DNA of 37,914 nucleotides from Nostoc linckia FACHB-104 (GTDB lineage Bacteria > Cyanobacteriota > Cyanobacteriia > Cyanobacteriales > Nostocaceae). Below the pieces are notes generated by a model. That model had not been told where the DNA came from and ran no database searches. It saw only the letters and a program-made list of their open reading frames with translations. The stretch covers positions 1 to 37,914 of the forward strand of contig NZ_JACJQJ010000079.1 of NCBI RefSeq assembly GCF_014696615.1, in the 5' to 3' direction. The stretch's first letter is position 1, and each line of letters starts with the position of its first letter. Positions 3,225-35,701 of the stretch are shown here, in pieces. The position numbers and the translations under genes were made by a program.

Positions 3225-3387
3225 AAAGCTTTGCTTACTTGCAGATGACACCCTGTATAAAATTTGCTCACCACTGAAAATCCACTAGATATTTAAATCA
3301 CTGCTCAAACAAGCTTATGCTAAAACCGATATCCTCTAAAAGAGGAATATTTCATGATTTCTTGACTTTTTGAGTGTAGTCCCGATC

Positions 3388-3720
3388 ATGCAAAATACTC
3401 GTATAAATAATTTAGTTGATGCTACTGCCAGACAATTAGGACTATGGTTTGTGAACCCTTGGCGTAGGTTGTCGCTACTGATAATTTGTTTTTTGTTTGG
3501 TTTCTTTCTGGGATCGGCAATTTCTACCAGTGCTGGACAAAGAGCAGAATTGGATATTTGGGTAGCAGCGATTTTAGTCTTACTTACAGAAGTGAGTAGC
3601 AGAATCTTCTACAGTCGTAACTTTTTCTCGCAGCGATCGCTATGGGTGGAAGCACTAAATTTTCTCAAGGTTGGTTTTACCTACAGCCTGTTTCTGGAGG
3701 CGTTCAAGCTGGGGTCGTGA
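3388..3720 (+). CDS. DUF565 / Ycf20-like membrane protein
   Basis: A 110-residue protein with the DUF565 (Ycf20) pattern: an amphipathic N-terminus (TARQLGLWFVNPWRRLS), a first membrane segment rich in Phe and Gly (LLIICFLFGFFLGSAIS), a second around VAAILVLLTEVSSRIFY, and a short C-terminal helix. Ycf20 proteins occur in cyanobacteria and plastids; in plants and algae they have been linked to non-photochemical quenching, but the bacterial role is unknown. An upstream TTG (3370) is in frame, but the ATG at 3388 gives the usual family N-terminus. No good ribosome binding site is visible before either. Confidence 0.8.
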   Translation: MQNTRINNLVDATARQLGLWFVNPWRRLSLLIICFLFGFFLGSAISTSAGQRAELDIWVAAILVLLTEVSSRIFYSRNFFSQRSLWVEALNFLKVGFTYSLFLEAFKLGS

Positions 3721-3850
3721 TGGGATTGGGGATTGGGGACTGGGGACTGGGGATGAGGGGGACAAGGGGACAAGGGGACAAGGGGACAAGGGGAGAAATT
3801 GCCATTACCAATTACCCATTACCAAATGACAAATGACGAATGACAAATGA
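3721..3850. repeat. Compound STRR block
   Basis: Three repeats stand side by side: a 7-mer series (GGGGATT/GGGGACT) at about 3721-3755, an 8-base series ACAAGGGG (four units) at about 3760-3795, and a 7-mer series AAATGAC that runs into the start codon of the glycerate kinase. The last series creates several ATG triplets close to the real start, so the translation start region of that gene is itself repeat-derived. Confidence 0.65.
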
Positions 3851-4842
3851 CAAATGATAATCTCACGGAAGCGGCTTTAGCAGATGGTTCTAGGGCGCAG
3901 GCTTTTGGAATTACAGCAGAAAATGTGGATGAAGTGATTCAAAGGCGATCGCATTTACTCAAATCTATCGAACCAGCTTTTAACCAGTTTTGCCAAACGA
4001 CTTTGCAAGTGGAACCCCAGGCGATGTTGCATACCCTGTGGGAGTTATGGTTACCTTTGGCGATTAAAATTGCATCCCAGCGTCAAAAGTTGGGACATCC
4101 CTTAATTCAAGGAATTTTGGGCGTACAAGGAACTGGTAAAACTACTATGTCCCAAGCGTTGACTTTGATTCTTCAAGAGTTGGGATATCACACTGTCACT
4201 GTATCTTTGGATGACTTATACAAAACCTATAGCGATCGCTTAGTTTTATCACAACAAGACCCCCGTTTAATTTGGCGAGGCCCACCTGGAACTCACGATA
4301 TTGATATTGGCTTAAATTTACTCGACCAGATTCACCAGTCACAAAGTCCAGTTGTGATTCCCCGGTTTGATAAATCTGCTTACGGTGGTGCAGGCGATCG
4401 CACTACTCCAGAAATCGCTGCAAATGTCGATATTCTGCTATTTGAAGGGTGGTTTGTGGGTGTAAGACCAATTGATCCCCAAGGCTTTGATGATGCGCCA
4501 GCGCCTATTTTTACAGATGCAGATCGGACGTTTGCCAGGCATATGAACCGTCAGTTAGAAAATTATCTCCCACTTTGGCAGCGATTGGATAGTTTAATCG
4601 TTTTATACCCTACTGATTATCGCTCATCCCTAGTATGGCGCAAACAAGCAGAACAAAAGATGATTGCATCTGGTAAATCAGGAATGAGCGAACAACAGAT
4701 AGAAGAATTTGTACATTATTTTTGGCGATCGCTGCACCCGGAATTATTCATCACACCTTTGGTTAACTCTCCGCAATGGGTTGATTTGGTGATTGAAATT
4801 AATAGCGATCGCAGTTTTGGCAATATCTACAGCCATAGCTGA
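3847..4842 (+). CDS. D-glycerate 3-kinase (plant/cyanobacterial type)
   Basis: A 331-residue P-loop kinase that phosphorylates D-glycerate to 3-phosphoglycerate, the last step of photorespiratory glycolate recycling into the Calvin cycle; cytoplasmic. Evidence: a Walker A motif GVQGTGKTT at 92-100, followed by VSLDDLYKTYSDR, which corresponds to the nucleoside/pantothenate-kinase-like fold, then WRGPPGTHD and IPRFDKSAYGGAGDR, typical of the GLYK family, and an acidic strand LLFEGWFVG that fits Walker B. Length matches cyanobacterial members. The ATG used sits inside an AAATGAC heptamer run and has no Shine-Dalgarno. Several HIP1 octamers fall in the gene. Confidence 0.88.
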   Translation: MTNDNLTEAALADGSRAQAFGITAENVDEVIQRRSHLLKSIEPAFNQFCQTTLQVEPQAMLHTLWELWLPLAIKIASQRQKLGHPLIQGILGVQGTGKTTMSQALTLILQELGYHTVTVSLDDLYKTYSDRLVLSQQDPRLIWRGPPGTHDIDIGLNLLDQIHQSQSPVVIPRFDKSAYGGAGDRTTPEIAANVDILLFEGWFVGVRPIDPQGFDDAPAPIFTDADRTFARHMNRQLENYLPLWQRLDSLIVLYPTDYRSSLVWRKQAEQKMIASGKSGMSEQQIEEFVHYFWRSLHPELFITPLVNSPQWVDLVIEINSDRSFGNIYSHS

Positions 4843-6165: not shown

Positions 6166-7623
6166 TCAACTTCTGGATTGCAGCTTTTGAACTAATTCAT
6201 AAAATGGTTGCCAATTATCTTCCTGTGCAATTGGTTCCCAAATAGATTCAATTACTGGTCTTAACAAGGCAGTTTTCGGATTAGCAACAGCGAGAGTTGC
6301 TGCAATTTCATCTATTTGTTCAGGAGCAAAATTATTTAAAATTTTATGGTACAAAAGACACCAGTTATCAAAAATTGGCGATGCTCCGGTAGCTGGGGCT
6401 ATATCGGAATCATGTAAAACAAAAGCAGGATCGTTACGCCATTTTATCGAAAAAGTCCGAGCAATTTCATAGAAAAATTGATGATATCCGACTTGGCTAG
6501 CTTGCAAAAATTCAATTGTCAGTTCTAACAAATCATCAACTTCTGGAACTTGCAAATGCTCAAAACCTAACTTTTTCAACATTAAAGAGCGATATTTAGC
6601 ATAATAATATTCTTCAAATTTTGCTAACCCTGAATCTAAATCACCTTTATCGATTATTGCTTTTAATGGTTCCTGGAGCATTTCTAGATTTAATCTACAA
6701 ATACTCGGCTGATGTCCATAACAATAGCGTCGATAGTAATCAAAATAAGCAGCAGTAAAATAGGGATCGTAAGTAGGAATAAAGGCATAGGGGCCATAGT
6801 CGAAGCTTTCCCCGGTAATTGACATATTGTCAGTATTTAAGACTGCATGGCAAAAACCCGCCGCCATCCATTGCGCTACAAGTTCCGCAACTCTTTTAAC
6901 TAATTCTGCATAAAACAAAGCATATTTATCTGGTTCTGCAGCTAAGTGGCGATAATATTGCTCAATTACATGGTCTAATAATTTTTGAGTTAAATCTGGA
7001 CGACGCAGATAGTGCGATCGCTCAAAAGTGCCAAACCGAATATGAGAACGGTTAATTCTCACCATCACAGATGAACGAGTCGGTGAAGGTTCATCACCCC
7101 GCCACAAAGATAAACCAGTTTCAATCATGGTTAAACAGCGTGAGGTGCGTACACCCAAAGAATGCAAAGCCTCCGCAGCCAAAACTTCCCGCACTCCGCC
7201 TTTGAGTGTCAACATCCCATCACCGCCACGCGAGTAGGGAGTTCTCCCAGAACCTTTAGTGCCAAAATCGTACAGTTCGCCATCTACACCCCGCACTTGT
7301 CCGTAGAGAAAGCCTCTACCATCACCCAAAGCAGGATTATATTCACCAAATTGATAGCCGTGATAACGCAACGCCAACAATGGTTGACGTTCTTGAAACT
7401 TACCAAAGGCGTTGATAAAATCTTCATCGGTGACAGCTTGGGGATTTAACCCCAAATTAGGTAAAACTGCGTCATTACGCCAGCGCAGGATATGTTGCGG
7501 AAATTCTGCTGCTGCTACTTCGTCGTAGTAGTCATTCCCTAGAGATTCAAAGGCGGGTTCGTATTTAAGGTGAAGAAAAGGATTACTAGAATTTGTTTGG
7601 TTGGGAGTTTCAGCCAGAGTCAT
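6166..7623 (-). CDS. selO: SelO family protein adenylyltransferase (YdiU)
   Basis: A 485-residue pseudokinase-fold enzyme of the SelO/YdiU family, which transfers AMP from ATP to Ser/Thr/Tyr residues of other proteins, in bacteria linked to redox stress. Visible family blocks: [19 protein letters not shown] (86-103), [16 protein letters not shown] (121-136) with the ATP-contacting Lys, and [18 protein letters not shown] (261-278) with the metal-binding Asn and Asp. The reading frame runs on upstream to 7794, but the ATG at 7623 ([10 protein letters not shown]) gives the expected N-terminus, directly before the conserved [21 protein letters not shown]. The C-terminal Cys/Sec tail of some members is not evident. 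Convergent with the peptidoglycan-binding gene; its upstream side faces the 21-bp repeat array. Confidence 0.88.
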
Positions 7624-7794
7624 TAGAAGTAAAGCTTCGTTAATTCTTCTCTTAATACTAACTCTGGCAATAGCCTCAGCGTCAGTTCTGCAAGCAGTCC
7701 CAATGAAACAAGTTTCACCACCAAGAATGAAAGTCGAGGGGGGATTTTTACTCAGCAACGCCACTTGCTTTAAGCCGGGAAACCCGTCCAACAC
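7624..7794 (-). other. In-frame open stretch upstream of selO, probably repeat-derived
   Basis: 57 open codons in frame with selO ([16 protein letters not shown], later [17 protein letters not shown]). They do not resemble the N-terminus of SelO proteins. The peptide sounds like conceptual translations I associate with a dispersed intergenic repeat in Nostocales, but I cannot confirm this. It could be 5' leader or a genuine extension. Confidence 0.35.
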
Positions 7795-7802
7795 AGTGGC
7801 TC

Positions 7803-7823
7803 CTCAGCACTCAGCACTCAGCA
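7803..7823. repeat. Heptamer STRR CTCAGCA x3
   Basis: Three exact CTCAGCA units. The same heptamer family (CTCAGCA / TGAGTGC) forms the insert in rnpB at 14168-14237. Confidence 0.75.
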
Positions 7824-7866
7824 CTTTCAAGTCAGAGGCGTTAGGAAGGGGAAAAAACAGTTTCCT

Positions 7867-8181
7867 AATCAGAACTTATGACAGCTTTTTGAGTAAGCAG
7901 TATGCTATTTTACTTGCGGAAAACACCAAAATGAGTGCGTGATTTACCCAAATGAGAACTCATTACAGCTTTTTGAGTAAGCATTATGTCATTTCACCTG
8001 CGGAAAACACTAAAATGAGTGCGTGATTTACTAAAATGAGAACTCATTACAGCTTTTTGAGTAAGCATTATGCCATTTTACTTGCGGAAAACACCAAAAT
8101 GAGAAGGCAGTAAGGCATTTTGAGTAAGCCTTTAGAGAAAATGAGTAGGCAATAAGGCTTTTTAAGTAGGTAAAAAGGCAT
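7867..8181. repeat. 21-bp-phase repeat array (15 units, 84-bp superrepeat)
   Basis: Fifteen contiguous 21-bp units in unbroken phase, no indels. Most begin AATGAG or TTTGAG, with a loose consensus wwTGAGTAaGCAnTAnGC. Four unit types (A AATGAGAACTCATTACAG..., B TTTGAGTAAGCATTATGC..., C TTTACTTGCGGAAAACAC..., D AATGAGTGCGTGATTTAC...) recur in the order ABCD ABCD ABC, which gives a nearly perfect 84-bp direct repeat starting at 7867/7871, 7951/7955 and 8035/8039. The last four units (8098-8181) are A/B-like and more diverged. Type A has a perfect dyad, AATGAG-AA-CTCATT. Every plus-strand frame has stops in most units, so it is not coding there. It sits about 240 bases upstream of the selO start. 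Confidence 0.85.
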
Positions 8182-8235
8182 TTTGCCAAATAATTTTAAA
8201 GCTCTATTAAAGATATAGCAGTAAAAAAAATATCA

Positions 8236-8290
8236 GTAGAGTCAGCATCAAGCGCTAAAACCTATATATGGTAGGTATTGCCGACTCTAC
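8236..8290. other. Three-part stem-loop
   Basis: GTAGAGTC (8236-8243) pairs with GACTCTAC (8283-8290), extended by GC/GC after one mismatch. Inside, ACCTA (8260-8264) pairs with TAGGT (8272-8276). A compact element of 55 bases just beyond the 21-bp array; it may be a structured RNA end or a small dispersed repeat. Confidence 0.45.
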
Positions 8291-8456
8291 AACGAAGATT
8301 AAAGATTATGTAATTTTTGCAATAATCAAACCGGATTCTTAGATTTTATGATTAAGGAACTTCCAGTAAATCTTAAGTAGGGGAGCCACTGCGTTGCCTT
8401 GCCCTCTAGAATATTTTCATGTGTCGCTTGATAAATATCCTCTAAAGATGCCTATA

Positions 8457-8487
8457 AGTTATTCAGAAATAACTCTTATTTAAGAGT
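8457..8487. other. Two overlapping hairpins
   Basis: AGTTATT / AATAACT (8457-8474) and ACTCTTA-TT-TAAGAGT (8472-8487) share three bases, so only one can form at a time. They lie in the gene-free stretch 8291-8739, where I see nothing else of note; it is downstream of the minus-strand acetyltransferase. Confidence 0.35.
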
Positions 8488-8739
8488 ATTTACTTTAACC
8501 AAACACTACTGAAGAAAAAAGTGGGGAATTAGATACAGGTTATCTTCTTCCCCCTTCACCTGGTGTTGCTGAAGCAACTTGGTATGAACACTAATAACTA
8601 TTACAGTCTGTTATGGAGCTACTGTGTATCTGATATGGATTTACTATGAAATTTTTTGGCTCAATTTGCCTAACAGCAATCACACTGAAGGATTTACGCA
8701 CCCAATTGATAATTCATAACTCATAATTCTGCCAAGTTA

Positions 8740-9315
8740 CTAAGATTTGGGCATTTCCCAGTGAGGATTTGTCAGACTTGTCATAATATGATCTTGCCAT
8801 TGCCCATTAATTAATAAATAGTCCCTAGCATACCCTTCAACAACAAAACCCAGCTTTTTAAGAACATTGCCACTACGTTGGTTATGTGGCATATAATTTG
8901 CCATGATCCGGTGCATATTTAATTCTTGAAAGACATAGTTAGTAGCTGCCTTTAATCCTTCTGCCATATAGCCTCTACCCTGTTCATCTTCTGCCAGGCT
9001 ATAACCGACATAGCAAAAATGGGCAGCACCTCTAACAAAATTCGTAAAATTAATCGTGCCAATAATTTCTGTTAAGCTTTTTTTGGGATAAATAAATAAT
9101 TTTAACGAGTGACCATTAATAAATTCTAGTAAATTACCTTCAACCTGATATTGCCAGTATTTGACAGTAAAAAAATCGTTAGCCCATTTGGGGTAATATG
9201 GGGTAAGATAATCTTTGTTCGTAGTAAAATATTTGAGGATTTGCGGTATATCCTCTTGAATACCGATTCTTAATAACAGGCGATCGCTCGTTATCAATGG
9301 TAGTTCTGATTTCAT
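8740..9315 (-). CDS. RimJ/RimL-type GNAT N-acetyltransferase
   Basis: A 191-residue GNAT enzyme that would move an acetyl group from acetyl-CoA to an amine, possibly the N-terminus of a ribosomal protein. Seen: TSDRLLLRIGIQEDIPQILKYF at the N-terminus, the acetyl-CoA binding motif DEQGRGYMAEGLKA (about 112-125; Q/R-x-x-G-x-A type), and the closing LNMHRIMANYMPHNQRSGNVLKKLGFVVEGYARDYLLINGQWQDH, which is a textbook RimJ/RimL ending. Start at ATG 9315 gives the standard N-terminus. It stands alone between gene-free stretches. The natural substrate is not predictable. Confidence 0.8.
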   Translation of the reverse strand: MKSELPLITSDRLLLRIGIQEDIPQILKYFTTNKDYLTPYYPKWANDFFTVKYWQYQVEGNLLEFINGHSLKLFIYPKKSLTEIIGTINFTNFVRGAAHFCYVGYSLAEDEQGRGYMAEGLKAATNYVFQELNMHRIMANYMPHNQRSGNVLKKLGFVVEGYARDYLLINGQWQDHIMTSLTNPHWEMPKS

Positions 9316-14022: not shown

Positions 14023-14487
14023 AAGGAGAGAGTAGGCGTAGGCGGTTGCAGATCAGTCACAAAAACTGGTTTGAGGAAAGTCCGGGCTCCCGAAAGACCA
14101 AACTTGCTGGATAACGTCCAGTGCGAGCGATCGTGAGGATAGTGCCACAGAAAGATACCGCCAAAGTCAGTACTGAGTAATGAGTGCTGAGTGCTGAGAA
14201 AAAAAAACTCAGAACTCAGAACTCAGCACTCAGAACTGTTTTGGTAAGGGTGCAAAGGTGCGGTAAGAGCGCACCAGCAACGTCGAGAGGCGTTGGCTCG
14301 GTAAACCCCGGTTGGGAGCAAGGCGAAAGGAACTATGGTTGGTCTTTTACCAGTTCCGCCAAAACAGAGCCGCTAGAGGCGTTTGGTAACAAACGTCCCA
14401 GATAGATAACCGCCCTCATGTAGAGAAGTTACTTGTAACATTTCTACATTCGAGAACAGAACCCGGCTTACTACCAACTCTTTCCTC
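14023..14487 (+). ncRNA. rnpB: RNase P RNA (catalytic RNA subunit)
   Basis: The ribozyme that trims the 5' leader from pre-tRNAs. Conserved parts in order: the P1 5' strand AGGAGAGAGT (14024-14033), GAGGAAAGTCCGGGCTCCC (CR I, about 14073-14091), CCACAGAAAGATACCGCC (about 14146-14163), GGTAAGGGTGCAAAGGTG, GGTAAACCCCG, and the 3' AGATAGATAACCGCC region followed by AGAACCCGGCTTA. The P1 3' strand ACTCTTTCCT (14477-14486) closes the molecule. The P12 region is enlarged by a heptamer repeat, which explains a length near 465 nt. The exact ends are set from the P1 pairing. The promoter is in the short gap after 13978; TACACT (14012-14017) could be its -10. Confidence 0.93.
14168..14237 (+). repeat. 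STRR insert in rnpB (P12 helix)
   Basis: TGAGTGC-type heptamers, a run of nine As, then CTCAGAA/CTCAGCA heptamers: the two arms are complementary and extend a hairpin. STRR inserts at this place in rnpB are an established feature of heterocyst-forming cyanobacteria. Confidence 0.85.
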
Positions 14488-14658
14488 TTTTTGGCATTTG
14501 GTGTTTGTCTTTAGGCGTTTGGCGCTAAAATTTTTAGCTCAACTAGATTTCTTAATTTTGAATTTTGAATTTTGCGGAAAGTTGCGTGCGGGGGTTCCCC
14601 CCGCCCTTGCAAACTTTCCAAGACGAATTTTGAATTGTTTCTCCCCCTTTCTGATTTA
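14488..14658. other. Spacer between rnpB and rnc with a TTTTGAA repeat
   Basis: Contains TTTTGAA heptamers at about 14551-14573 and a hairpin-prone G/C tract (GGGGGTTCCCCCC, about 14590-14602). The reading frame of rnc is open through part of it but does not encode RNase III-like residues. Confidence 0.45.
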
Positions 14659-24637: not shown

Positions 24638-24724
24638 GTTTGGTGTTTGGTAATGGGTAATTGGGAATTGGTAATTGGTGTTTGAGAGAGAACAGGTTAT
24701 TCTTTTGAATTTTGAATTGTTTTA

Positions 24725-28841: not shown

Positions 28842-30872
28842 TTAATTGGCTGTTTCTTTATTTTGAGATAAATGCCAAATCTTAATAATATTATCAGCGC
28901 TACCACCGCTAGCAATAGTTTTACCATCAGGGCTGATTGCCACAGAATAAATATAACCAGAATCTCGCTTCAAAGTCCGAATTTCTTTCCCTGTTGTTGT
29001 ATTCCATAATTTGATAGTGTTATCGCTACTACCACTGACAACAGTAAAATTATTTGCTGTTTTGCTATCTTCTACTTTAGGTATATAAACTACAGAATTT
29101 ACCTTATCTTTATGACCTTTTAAAGTGCGAATTGCCTCTCCTGTTACCAAATTCCATAATTTAATTGACTTATCTTTACTACCACTAGCTAAAGTCATAC
29201 CATCGGGGCTAAAGGCTACAGAAATAATTAATTCTGAATGTCCTACAAAAGTCCGAATTTCTTTTCCAGTCGCCACGTTCCAGAGTTTAATTTTTTTGTC
29301 CCAACTACCACTAGCCAGGGTACTGCCATCGGGACTAAAAGCTACAGATGAAACTGCTTGTGTATGTCCTTTCAAAGTGCGAATTAGTTGACCATTGGAG
29401 AGATTCCACAGGTTAATTGTCTTGTCTATACTGCTACTGGCTAGAGTTTTGCCATCCGGACTAAAAGCCACAGATGAAATTCCTTCAGTATGCCCTTTAA
29501 AGGTGTTAATTTCCTCTCCATTAGCAAGATTCCAAAGTTTAATAGTCTTATCTGCACTACCACTAGCTAAGGTTTTACCATCTGGACTAAAAGCAACAGC
29601 CCAAATCCATTTTTTGTGTCCTTTGAGAGTACTAATTTTCTGATTTGTTTTCAGATTCCAAACTTTAATTGTATTGTCATCACTACCACTAGCTAAAGTC
29701 ATACCATCACTAGCAAAGGCTACAGCATTAACATCGCTAGCATGACCTTTGAGAGTTGTAGGTTGGTCAGAATTTTCTGTAATGTTTGCCGGTTGACTAG
29801 GGTTAGCGAATCTAGTTACTTCTTGGGAACGAGATTGTAAATACCAAATTCCTCCTAATCCCAGCAGCAAAATAGCAGTATTAATTAATAACCGATGTTT
29901 AAGATAGAAGCTTTGGGTAGGGGAAGAAGGTTCAATGATAGTTGGTGGTGGTACTAGGGAAGGCTTATGTGTTAAGTCTTGGATCACTTCATCAGCAGAA
30001 TGATAACGCTGGTGAATTTCTGTTTTTAGCAGTTTATCTAGAACAAGATCCACATTTACATTTGAAGCTACTCCATCCCTATCCTGATTTGCTAAATACT
30101 CGTGCCAAGAATTAACCCAACTGTACCCCTTTTGCATCCACAGTTGAGAGGGACGAATCCCACTGAGTAAATGAAAGCAAGTTACACCCAAACTGAATAA
30201 ATCACTGGACGGATAAGCTTTACCATCCTGCATTTGTTCAATAGGAGTATAACCATGTGAGCCAATGGTTGTGCCAATTTGAGTATGTACTGTTGCTGTT
30301 AATTGCTTTGAGGAACCAAAATCAATCAAAACTAATCGCCCATCACTTTGACGACGAATAATATTTTGTGGTTTGATGTCTCGATGAATTACGCCGCGCT
30401 CATGAATAAACTTGAGAATGGGAAGTAAATCTAGTAAAAGTTCAACAATTTTACTTTTGTTATAAGTTACCCCTGTTCGTAATTCCTGTAGTAAATTCTG
30501 TCCATTGATATACTGCTGTACTAAAAATAGATAATTATCTTGTTCAAAGTATGCTAAAAGTGTAGGAATTTGCGGATGTTCCCCTAATTTCTGCAGTTGT
30601 TTGGCTTCATCTTTAAATAGCTCAACTGCTTTCTTTAATGTAGAAGTATCCTGTATTTTAGGTGCAAATTGTTTAACTACGCACCATTCGTTTAGCTTAT
30701 CCGCATCTTCCGCTAGATAGGTTCTACCAAATCCTCCTTCATCAGATAGTACTTTAATTACACGATAACGGCCCCTTAAAAGTGATATCAATGGATGATT
30801 ACAACTCAGGCAAACTTCTTGCCGATCTGGATTTTGAGGATTGGGGCAATCGGGATTCAGACAGCAGATCAT
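28842..30872 (-). CDS. Membrane Ser/Thr protein kinase with C-terminal WD40 propeller
   Basis: A 676-residue fusion. The N-terminus (1-33) has a Cys-rich zinc-ribbon-like motif (C3, C4, C9, C21, C24). A Hanks-type kinase domain follows (about 37-300): glycine loop SDEGGFGRTYLAE, ATP-binding Lys in VVKQF, catalytic HRDIKPQN, DFG as IDFGSSK, and GYTPIEQMQ. One membrane helix (NTAILLLGLGGIWYL, about 330-345) then leads to seven WD40 blades of about 42 residues (SPDGKTLASGSADKTIKLWN type), which would form one beta-propeller. The membrane helix puts the kinase in the cytoplasm and the propeller outside, so it probably acts as a sensor. Cys-motif kinases of this sort (SpkB-like) are known in cyanobacteria. 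A close paralogue lies at 33668. Confidence 0.9.
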   Translation of the reverse strand: MICCLNPDCPNPQNPDRQEVCLSCNHPLISLLRGRYRVIKVLSDEGGFGRTYLAEDADKLNEWCVVKQFAPKIQDTSTLKKAVELFKDEAKQLQKLGEHPQIPTLLAYFEQDNYLFLVQQYINGQNLLQELRTGVTYNKSKIVELLLDLLPILKFIHERGVIHRDIKPQNIIRRQSDGRLVLIDFGSSKQLTATVHTQIGTTIGSHGYTPIEQMQDGKAYPSSDLFSLGVTCFHLLSGIRPSQLWMQKGYSWVNSWHEYLANQDRDGVASNVNVDLVLDKLLKTEIHQRYHSADEVIQDLTHKPSLVPPPTIIEPSSPTQSFYLKHRLLINTAILLLGLGGIWYLQSRSQEVTRFANPSQPANITENSDQPTTLKGHASDVNAVAFASDGMTLASGSDDNTIKVWNLKTNQKISTLKGHKKWIWAVAFSPDGKTLASGSADKTIKLWNLANGEEINTFKGHTEGISSVAFSPDGKTLASSSIDKTINLWNLSNGQLIRTLKGHTQAVSSVAFSPDGSTLASGSWDKKIKLWNVATGKEIRTFVGHSELIISVAFSPDGMTLASGSKDKSIKLWNLVTGEAIRTLKGHKDKVNSVVYIPKVEDSKTANNFTVVSGSSDNTIKLWNTTTGKEIRTLKRDSGYIYSVAISPDGKTIASGGSADNIIKIWHLSQNKETAN

Positions 30873-33667: not shown

Positions 33668-35701
33668 TTACTTACGTATATACCAAATCTTAATAGTATT
33701 ATCCTCACTACCACTAATTATATTTTGACCATTGGGGCTAAAAGTAATAGAGTTTACGGTATTGTGATGCCCACTTAGTGTTAAAATATTCTCTCCATTA
33801 AATAAATTCCACAGTTTAATTGTGCGATCGCGACTCCCACTAGCCAAGGTTTTACCATCTGGACTCATAGCTAGGGATGTAACTGTATTGACATGACCAA
33901 CTAAGGTGCGAATTACTTCTCCCCTAGATAAATTCCAGAGTTTAATTGTGCGATCGCGGTTGGCACTAGCTAAAATTTTTCCATCAGGACTAATGGCAAG
34001 TGATGTAATCGTTTTTCCGTCTCCTAAAAGGGTACGAATTGCGTATCCTTTAGCGACATTCCACACTTTGATAGTTTTATCAAAACTACCGCTAACCAAA
34101 ATTTGACCATCTGGGCTCATAGCAATTGACCGTACCCAAAATTCATGTCCTACTAATGTACGGATGTGTCTGCCTGTTTCCAGATTCCACAGTTTGATGG
34201 TGTTATCATCACTACCACTGGCAAGGGTTTTACCATCTGAACTAATCGTTAAAGCATGAACTGAATCTGTATGTCCTTCCAAGGTACGAATTAATTTACC
34301 TGTGGACAAATTCCAAACTTTAATAGTGCTGTCTTCACTACCACTCACCAGAATTTTGCCATTAGGACTAATAGCCACCACATTTACCCTTTGGGAGTGG
34401 CCTTTCAGGTGGGAAACTTCTTTTCCAGTGACTATATTCCATACTTGAATCGTGCGATCTCTATTACTTGCTAGCAATCGACCATTGGGGCTAATCGCAA
34501 CAGATGAAATTCCATTGTCACTGGCTTCCAAGGTATTAGCTAAAGTAATGTTACCCAAAGTCATCTTTGGCTGCTCTAAAACTACATCGCTCTGATCGCG
34601 ATGATTCTGAGATTGAGTCAGGCGCGAAGATAAATTGGTTTGCAGTTTGTACAATTGTTTATACCAAGATTCGCCAAATCCAAACAGTAGAGTGGCAGCA
34701 GATGCTAAGACAAGAATTCGCAGGAAGTTATATTTTTTAGGAAGGTATTGTGTTTGAGTTTTGGGGGTCTTACCAGTTAATTTAACTGAAGGTAGCAATC
34801 GCAGTGGTTGTTTAAAAGACAAATCTTTGATGACTTCATCAACTGATTGATAGCGAGAGCGAATGTCTTTTTGTAACAGCTTATCTAGCAAGCGATCCAA
34901 TTCTGGACTCAGGGGATTACGCAAATATTGTCGCCAATTTGTCACCCAAGAATATCCATGTTCTGTCCACAATTGAAAGGGAGAAATTCCTGTTAGTAGA
35001 TGAAAGCAAGTAGTTCCCAAGCCAAATAAATCACTGGCTGGGTAAGCTTGACCATCTCTAATTTGTTCAATTGGTGAGTAACCATGAGAACCAATAGAGG
35101 TACCAGTTTTGTTTTGTACTCTTGCTGTTAACTGCTTTGAGGAGCCAAAATCTATTAAACACAAGCGTCCATCATGATGACGACGAATAATATTTTCTGG
35201 CTTGAGATCGCGATGAATGACTCCGCGATCGTGAATGAATTTAAGAATCGGGAGTAAATCAGTTAAAATTGCGACAATTTCTTTATCTTTATAGGTTTTG
35301 CGTTTGTGCAACTCCGTTAACAAATTATGCCCATTGATAAACTGCTGCACTAAATATAGGCAGTGATCTTGCTCAAAATAAGCTAAAAGTGTAGGAATTT
35401 GCGGATGTTCTCCGAGTTGTTGCAATCGCTTAGCTTCTTCTGCAAATAACTCCATCGCTTTTTTTTGTGACCAAGTTCCTTGGAACTTCGGAGCTAATTG
35501 CTTGATCACACAACGTTCATGTAGTTTATCTACATCTTGTGATAGGTAAGTTCTACCAAATCCCCCCTCATCGGAAAGCACTCGAATAACACGGAAGCGA
35601 TTTCTTAAAAGGCTTATGAGTGGAGTATTACAAGCTTGGCAAAACTTATTTTCATCAGGATTTAAAGGATTTGAACAATCGGGATTTAAGCAGCAGATCA
35701 T
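33668..35701 (-). CDS. Membrane Ser/Thr protein kinase with C-terminal WD40 propeller (paralogue)
   Basis: A 677-residue protein with the same plan as the gene at 28842: Cys-rich start (MICCLNPDCSNPLNPDENKFCQAC), kinase domain with SDEGGFGRTYLSQ, Lys in VIKQL, HRDLKPEN, IDFGSSK and GYSPIEQI, one membrane helix (ILVLASAATLLFGFGESWY, about 325-345), a spacer, and seven WD40 blades. ATG 35701 is chosen over the longer frame to 35728 because it matches the paralogue's N-terminus exactly. Kinase halves are nearly collinear with each other; blade sequences differ more. Together with the lone propeller gene just downstream (on the same strand, 104 bases) it may form a transcription unit. Confidence 0.9.
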   Translation of the reverse strand: MICCLNPDCSNPLNPDENKFCQACNTPLISLLRNRFRVIRVLSDEGGFGRTYLSQDVDKLHERCVIKQLAPKFQGTWSQKKAMELFAEEAKRLQQLGEHPQIPTLLAYFEQDHCLYLVQQFINGHNLLTELHKRKTYKDKEIVAILTDLLPILKFIHDRGVIHRDLKPENIIRRHHDGRLCLIDFGSSKQLTARVQNKTGTSIGSHGYSPIEQIRDGQAYPASDLFGLGTTCFHLLTGISPFQLWTEHGYSWVTNWRQYLRNPLSPELDRLLDKLLQKDIRSRYQSVDEVIKDLSFKQPLRLLPSVKLTGKTPKTQTQYLPKKYNFLRILVLASAATLLFGFGESWYKQLYKLQTNLSSRLTQSQNHRDQSDVVLEQPKMTLGNITLANTLEASDNGISSVAISPNGRLLASNRDRTIQVWNIVTGKEVSHLKGHSQRVNVVAISPNGKILVSGSEDSTIKVWNLSTGKLIRTLEGHTDSVHALTISSDGKTLASGSDDNTIKLWNLETGRHIRTLVGHEFWVRSIAMSPDGQILVSGSFDKTIKVWNVAKGYAIRTLLGDGKTITSLAISPDGKILASANRDRTIKLWNLSRGEVIRTLVGHVNTVTSLAMSPDGKTLASGSRDRTIKLWNLFNGENILTLSGHHNTVNSITFSPNGQNIISGSEDNTIKIWYIRK

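What the first reader, a model, noticed from the sequence alone, without database searches (positions are those of the whole stretch)
7867..8181. Unbroken 21-bp-phase array with an 84-bp higher-order repeat
Fifteen units keep exact 21-bp phase with no indel although single units differ at many positions. Four unit types recur in fixed order ABCD, and alternate units begin AATGAG and TTTGAG. Twenty-one bases is two turns of B-DNA, so the conserved TGAGTAAGC-like core would always lie on the same face of the helix, as expected for cooperative protein binding or a curved DNA element. It is unlike the heptamer STRRs and the 37-bp LTRRs known to me from these bacteria. Selection on the phase is inferred; recent 84-bp duplication explains only part of it, because the last four units are outside the superrepeat and still in phase.
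Basis: seen in the sequence. Interest (0 to 1): 0.7.

Follow-up and report, generated by a model that had tools for sequence, protein, structure and literature searches.

The report
Private 21-base arrays with partner genes
The repeat block beside selO is one scattered copy of a repeat type that elsewhere sits just upstream of a small uncharacterised cyanobacterial gene, and most of the examined members of that gene family carry their own, differently spelled repeat block with the same 21-base (two DNA turns) rhythm, which suggests an undescribed family of proteins that read matching DNA arrays.

Summary
The array is real: 15 units in strict 21-bp register, an 84-bp superrepeat plus four in-phase units. 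It is not unique: this genome holds four copies, sister genomes 2 to 39 matched stretches. The copy on contig C158, like 15 loci from other cyanobacteria, lies about 117-186 bp upstream of, and divergent from, a small gene without a convincing match in Pfam, NCBIfam, PHROGs, PADLOC or PDB. The gene is a multigene family (16 near-full-length members here; 81 of 388 class genomes). Of 87 upstream regions tested, 62 hold an array, 55 of them at 21 or 42 bp, against 0 of 72 downstream regions and 12 of 333 upstream regions of other ORFs. Array sequences are unrelated except between close proteins. Two further array types also have orphan copies. So the selO array is an orphan copy of a gene-array module. 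Coding and a shared hairpin were tested and not supported. Predicted curvature is strong for this type but not general. Best explanation: each protein binds its own array, units two helical turns apart, and orphans are extra sites. Binding is inferred. Nine paper searches listed nothing on it.

The parts
7867..8181 (+). Array of fifteen 21-bp units, an orphan copy of the C158-type array; drawn so that the partner gene of the C158 copy lies to the left on the minus strand
7867..8103 (+). 84-bp superrepeat ABCD, 2.8 copies
   Evidence: TRF
8098..8181 (+). Four further units in the same phase, outside the superrepeat (the first overlaps the end of the TRF interval)
7916..7935 (+). Core GCGGAAAACACYAAAATGAG, copy 1
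8000..8019 (+). Core, copy 2
8084..8103 (+). Core, copy 3
6166..7794 (-). selO (protein adenylyltransferase), longest ORF; the array lies upstream of it. A likely ATG is at 7623 (inferred from the translation), 244 bp from the array
8740..9315 (-). ORF that looks like an acetyltransferase (judged from its sequence, no family search run); its 3' end faces the array; present beside the array in three sister genomes as well

Best explanation
The array is an orphan (trans) copy of a two-part module: a small protein with basic ends and a predicted long helix, and, upstream of its gene, a private tandem array whose units are two helical turns apart. Shown: the module recurs in many paralogs and genomes; the period is shared although the array sequences are not; orphan arrays of the three types tested lie elsewhere in the genome. 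Inferred: each protein binds its own array, one unit (or a pair, since 42 bp is often the stronger period) per protein dimer, on one face of the helix, with neighbour contacts that tolerate 20 or 21 bp but rarely 22; it thereby controls its own gene and gathers or marks the orphan sites. For the window's type, predicted in-phase curvature would help to wrap or bridge the DNA.
For: 62 of 87 upstream regions of family genes hold arrays (self-match 0.5 or more): 55 at 21 or 42 bp, 6 at 20, 40 or 41, one at 18; 0 of 72 downstream and 0 of 87 shuffled regions do; upstream of other ORFs 12 of 333, of which 5 at 21 or 42. 14 of 16 near-full-length paralogs of this genome have one. Array sequences are recognisably alike only between close proteins. 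Coding: on the gene strand 34 of 62 arrays have an open frame against 33.4 in column-permuted controls, and codon-position variation is flat. Common hairpin: dyad score 0.648 against 0.611 in controls, GU 143 against AC 127. Orphans: three for the window type, two and three for two other types. All 16 genomes with window-type arrays (of 388) are among the 81 with the gene family (P 3.6e-12 if genomes were independent). Protein ends are basic: mean net charge +4.7 (residues 1-18) and +5.4 (14 residues after AGG) in 86 proteins; helix 36-89 predicted.
Against: No binding was or could be measured, and no recognised DNA-binding domain was found; the structure model is weak overall (mean pLDDT 65, pTM 0.29). 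In 25 of 87 upstream regions no array reached the threshold, though 17 of these still have 20, 21, 41 or 42 as top lag. Many of the 87 loci are related to each other, so they are not 87 independent cases. G007 has window-type array matches but no close ortholog of the partner. Phase drifts by -1 bp in many Nostoc arrays. Half-unit (10.5 bp) A-tract spacing was not seen: peaks at 8 and 12, then 20-22. RNA folding is more stable than shuffles (see first rival).
Confidence: 0.58

Rival explanations
1. The array acts as RNA: it is transcribed as a small repeat RNA that pairs with or inhibits the small protein, as in type III toxin-antitoxin systems.
For: The place upstream of a small gene resembles type III TA (recalled). 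Folding of window-type arrays is more stable than dinucleotide shuffles (mean z -2.1 plus, -1.7 minus; 50 of 127 arrays folded before the script's time limit); the consensus fold of 12 G001 copies beats column shuffles on the plus strand (z -3.2; minus -0.9); unit junctions show a small excess of dyads over permuted halves.
Against: The covariation term of the consensus fold is unfavourable (+1.13 and +0.49); no shared hairpin in the unrelated arrays and no clear strand bias of GU pairs (143 against 127); pairing excess along stems is no larger than along the parallel null; no Rfam match above a gathering score in 7000-9000; RNA gives no reason for one fixed 21-bp period; no toxin-family match.
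Confidence: 0.15
2. The arrays are selfish or neutral satellites that spread by recombination or transposition, and the gene is a hitch-hiker or helps them spread.
For: 39 matched stretches in G001 (its first look was capped), where copies share about 430 bp with ends that look sharp by eye; one such copy has no array match at the collinear place in seven relatives (in G006 the flanks are 125 bp apart against 559); copies on three Tolypothrix/Microchaete plasmid records; window-type arrays persist in G007 without a close ortholog of the gene.
Against: Length and phase are kept while sequence drifts: of 16 G001 copies with both anchors (of 20 fetched), 15 differ in length by 0, -63 or -84 bp, and the 12 of equal length differ by 13% on average. 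The array beside the gene keeps its place from Leptolyngbya and Stenomitos contigs to Nostoc. Spread explains dispersal, not one period in unrelated arrays.
Confidence: 0.17
3. A diverged heptad-repeat protein gene explains the phase.
For: 21 bp is seven codons; 30 arrays overlap an ORF of 90 aa or more and 21 loci share a related one; the minus strand of window-type arrays has fewer stops per unit (0.22-0.38) than a shuffle (0.58); 42 of 62 paralog arrays have an open antisense frame against 32.3 in controls.
Against: 56 of 63 window-type arrays at least have no stop-free frame (7 stop-free frames counted in all); codon-position variation is flat on both strands and the gene strand shows no excess of open frames; 126 one-base-short steps of 800 would break any frame.
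Confidence: 0.03

Closest known systems
Iteron-controlled plasmid replicons (Rep protein with upstream iterons; recalled)
   Same: Direct repeats near two helical turns apart, upstream of the gene whose product would bind them, plus copies of the repeats elsewhere
   Different: Nearly all members found lie in chromosome-scale or unassigned contigs (one plasmid record); up to 16 paralogs in this genome; no Rep-family match; median 127 aa; no replication link shown
ParABS or ParMRC partition loci (recalled)
   Same: Small DNA-binding adaptor and an array of sites upstream of its gene; extra sites elsewhere
   Different: No conserved neighbouring gene within up to 1.2 kb downstream; many private array types in one genome
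REP elements with RAYT transposases (recalled; a REPIN paper, PMC3116915, seen in a search listing only)
   Same: Dispersed intergenic repeats related to the repeats flanking one gene
   Different: Long tandem arrays, not short palindromes; no transposase match
Type III toxin-antitoxin systems (recalled)
   Same: Tandem repeats directly upstream of a small gene
   Different: Roughly 8-17 units of 21 bp, no toxin-family match, no conserved RNA fold shown, orphan arrays
STRR heptamers and 37-bp LTRR of heterocystous cyanobacteria (recalled)
   Same: Tandem intergenic repeats in the same bacteria
   Different: Period and partner gene; heptamer arrays also occur in this window and were not tested for a partner

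Membership tests
Iteron-Rep replicon | Rep initiator protein encoded next to the iterons | tested here: not met
   No Rep match shared by members: Pfam and NCBIfam on 52 members gave only scattered weak hits (no Pfam family in more than 4 of 52, best E 7e-5; NCBIfam PRK06762.1-1 in 13 of 52, best E 0.0007, far under its cut-off in the member shown; one member hit rep_pAB02_ORF2 at 0.04), PHROGs on 14 members none below 0.026, PDB best E 0.044
Iteron-Rep replicon | Direct repeats about two helical turns apart upstream of the gene | tested here: met
Type III toxin-antitoxin | Endoribonuclease toxin of a known type III family | tested here: not met
   No toxin family among the Pfam hits shown (52 members) and no PADLOC match (14 members)
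Type III toxin-antitoxin | Structured repeat RNA antitoxin | tested here: inconclusive
   No common hairpin; folding more stable than shuffles, but without covariation support
ParABS / ParMRC partition | Motor ATPase or actin/tubulin-like gene in the locus | tested here: not met
   No ORF family shared by more than 3 loci within up to 1.2 kb downstream; the far side of the arrays was not tested for the paralogs
REP/RAYT | Y1 transposase gene flanked by the repeats | tested here: not met
Coding heptad repeat | Open frame and codon-position bias | tested here: not met
Known structured RNA | Rfam family match | tested here: not met
   Window 7000-9000: only two matches, both under their gathering scores
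Gene-array module described here | 21-bp-period array upstream of a family gene, or an orphan copy of such an array | tested here: met
   Window array is 77% identical to the C158 array, which lies upstream of a family gene
Gene-array module described here | The protein binds its array | not testable with these tools
   Needs a binding assay

The most novel reading that the evidence does not exclude
Cyanobacteria carry a set of parallel, private DNA-address systems: each paralog of a small long-helix protein reads only its own satellite-like array (units two helical turns apart) and its few orphan copies, bridging or marking those chromosomal places, so that one genome runs up to 16 mutually distinct protein-array pairs that evolve together much as eukaryotic satellites and their binders do.
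Probability: 0.3. Interest if true: 0.95.

Novelty: categorically new. Interest (0 to 1): 0.85.

Why it matters
A gene family found in about a fifth of the sampled class genomes (81 of 388), without a convincing match in the libraries searched, is tied to arrays that share a spatial period and not a sequence. If binding is confirmed, it gives up to 16 natural, mutually distinct protein-DNA pairs in one cell, a clean system for how recognition and repeats evolve together, and a candidate layer of chromosome organisation or regulation in large-genome cyanobacteria.

Tried and rejected
Coding repeat: rejected. Shared hairpin: junction dyads show a small excess over permuted halves, but pairing excess in window-type units does not exceed the parallel null and unrelated arrays show no general excess. 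RNAalifold on 12 copies: plus-strand energy beats column shuffles (z -3.2), covariation term unfavourable. Curvature as the shared feature: strong for the window type, not general. Phage or viral origin: no match in phages or IMG/VR; few plasmid records (three for the array, one for the protein). Promoter role of orphans: 82 arrays, cognate loci included, show mixed flanking orientations (30, 18, 17, 17). Neighbouring partner gene: none conserved downstream. A fold search was not run because the model is weak; the second structure job was not used. Papers: the nine searches listed nothing on this as far as titles and abstract starts show; no paper was opened; the L019 rows are meaningless because that locus was not re-oriented, and were dropped; 3 of 90 loci were dropped for lack of 500 bp upstream. 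(a second test for an empty site) was not used: its flanks did not give a clear collinear site. One search holds an unfinished block that computed nothing used here.

Full report
What is there. It lies upstream of selO (minus strand; longest ORF starts at 7794, likely ATG 7623) and downstream of an ORF that looks like an acetyltransferase.

It is a dispersed family. A whole-genome search finds four copies in this genome: the window (C159), C94 (82% identity), C158 (77%) and C100 (78%). All 8 genomes of the genus have matches, from 2 to 39 matched stretches (only 40 of 53 candidates were scored in G001, which has the 39). G001 is Calothrix brevissima NIES-22, judged from contig length. The selO-site copy is shared by G000, G002, G003, G004 and Calothrix membranacea FACHB-236. 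Between G000 and two sisters (G004, G003) the aligned array differs by about 6-8% with no internal indel; the intergenic stretches on either side differ more in most 100-bp bins and have gaps.

Phase. A 21-bp unit profile was scanned over the fetched loci. After removing redundant loci and arrays under 8 units, the genus set (plasmid copies included) has 39 arrays with 542 of 551 steps a multiple of 21; the other set has 75 arrays with 665 of 800, 126 one base short and 4 one base long. So 20 and 21 bp are tolerated and 22 hardly. In G001, 16 of 20 fetched copies have both end anchors; anchor distances are 343 (12 copies), 280 (2), 259 (1) and 345 (1), so 15 of 16 differ by 0, -63 or -84; the 12 equal-length copies differ by 13% on average.

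The partner gene. Among ORFs flanking the arrays of the named loci, one small protein recurs in 15 loci, including the Leptolyngbya, Pantanalinema, Stenomitos and Chlorogloeopsis contigs. Fourteen members were printed: 13 lie on one side and strand, 117-186 bp from the array, reading away from it; the fourteenth is a locus already counted, seen from a second, reverse-strand call of the same array. The C158 copy of this genome has the same layout. The protein has no convincing family match: weak, scattered coiled-coil-type hits only, the broadest being an NCBIfam model in 13 of 52 members at best E 0.0007. It is a multigene family: 47 of 242 class genomes with one sequence, 81 of 388 with a profile, three of them only weakly (E above 1e-4), and in this genome 16 near-full-length and two partial or marginal matches, none on the window contig.

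The key result. I fetched 90 loci of family genes, not all members found; 87 have at least 500 bp upstream. 62 of 87 have a tandem array by self-match of 0.5 or more; periods are 42 (34), 21 (21), 41 (4), and 40, 20 and 18 (one each). None of 72 downstream and none of 87 shuffled regions reach the threshold. Upstream regions of other ORFs do in 12 of 333: period 14 in 5, 21 in 4, and 42, 45 and 18 in one each. The loci include close orthologs, so they are not independent. In this genome 14 of 16 near-full-length paralogs have an array. A named example is Kovacikia minuta plasmid pA. By strict limits the paralog arrays have a median of 178 bp and lie a median of 207 bp from the ATG. Their sequences are unrelated except between close proteins: above 0.8 protein similarity 55% of 31 pairs align well, at 0.65-0.8 9% of 66, below 0.65 none of 1794. 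Two other array types of this genome were tested for orphans: the C93 type has two (C13, C52) and the C160 type three (C3, C168, C131; one search lists C131 twice, overlapping); none of these contigs is among the family-gene matches.

What this excludes. Coding: of 63 strictly phased window-type arrays only 7 stop-free frames were seen, all on the minus strand; in the 62 paralog arrays open frames on the gene strand and codon-position variation look like permuted controls, with a mild antisense excess of open frames (42 against 32.3). Shared hairpin: dyad strength 0.648 against 0.611, above control in 31 of 51 arrays, GU 143 against AC 127. Results that lean to RNA: window-type arrays fold more stably than dinucleotide shuffles on both strands (mean z -2.1 and -1.7, 50 of 127 arrays), and the consensus fold of 12 copies beats column shuffles on the plus strand (z -3.2) but with an unfavourable covariation term.

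Curvature. With recalled wedge parameters the window array has a predicted end-to-end shortening of 0.29 against 0.05-0.08 for five window flanks, above all 60 column-permuted controls. 46 genus-set and 71 other window-type arrays, not fully freed of duplicates, average 0.20 and 0.23 against 0.05 in 75 flanks. The unrelated arrays do not share this: 25 of 49 above control. Curvature is a property of this type and not of the module.

Mobility. G001 copies share about 430 bp with ends that look sharp by eye. One copy (L286) has both flanks collinear in seven relatives with no array match between them; in G006 the flanks lie 125 bp apart against 559 in G001. So some copies are probably recent gains.

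Co-occurrence. Window-type arrays at E 1e-6 or better occur in 16 of 388 class genomes, all among the 81 with the gene family (hypergeometric P 3.6e-12, which ignores relatedness). Against a strict pairing: G007 has two array matches but no ortholog at E 1e-40.

Mechanism. The shared feature of the module is a spacing of two helical turns, not a sequence, a reading frame or a fold. That is what cooperative binding on one face of DNA would keep. The protein fits such a role: basic first 18 residues (mean +4.7), basic stretch after the AGG motif (+5.4), acidic middle (-2.5), in 86 proteins, and a predicted helix over residues 36-89 (pLDDT about 76-93 over residues 31-80 within a weak model), about as long as one 21-bp unit (inference). 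The core GCGGAAAACAC is nearly invariant in 34 sequences while the rest of the units varies, partly by construction because the sequences were chosen for having the core. Binding, self-regulation and the role of orphans are inferred.

Verdict. The finding is confirmed and larger than reported: the array belongs to what looks like an undescribed gene-array system. Interest 0.85.

Noticed in passing
window 3722-3754, 3823-3857, 7803-7825, 14206-14237, 14554-14574, 24647-24679: Short heptamer tandem repeats (STRR-like, name recalled) are scattered through the window, one of them just upstream of the array.
   Followed up: no
window 29107-29708 and 33802-34125: 126-bp repeats inside long minus-strand ORFs, WD40-like by length (recalled, not searched).
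   Followed up: no
L286 about 1425-1634: A separate dispersed repeat of about 190 bp with dozens of listed matches at roughly 85-95% identity in genomes of the genus.
   Followed up: no
L283 about 3293-3566: Another dispersed repeat with many matches in G001 and G005, partly inverted on itself, next to one of the G001 arrays.
   Followed up: no
L048-L150, minus strand of arrays: Antisense ORFs (HFGVFRKQ-like) run over arrays, 21 loci sharing related ones, and may be mis-annotated as genes.
   Followed up: partly
Nostoc loci such as L049, L056, L061, L065: Arrays with a 62-bp superrepeat (21+21+20) instead of 63, so helical phase drifts along the array.
   Followed up: partly
L106: Single exact core match in a Gammaproteobacteria MAG; no array was called there, probably chance.
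   Followed up: no
L017, L047 and NZ_CP063787.1: Window-type arrays on mobilizable plasmids of Tolypothrix / Microchaete; in L017 and L047 between S8 peptidase and TPR (CHAT) genes.
   Followed up: partly
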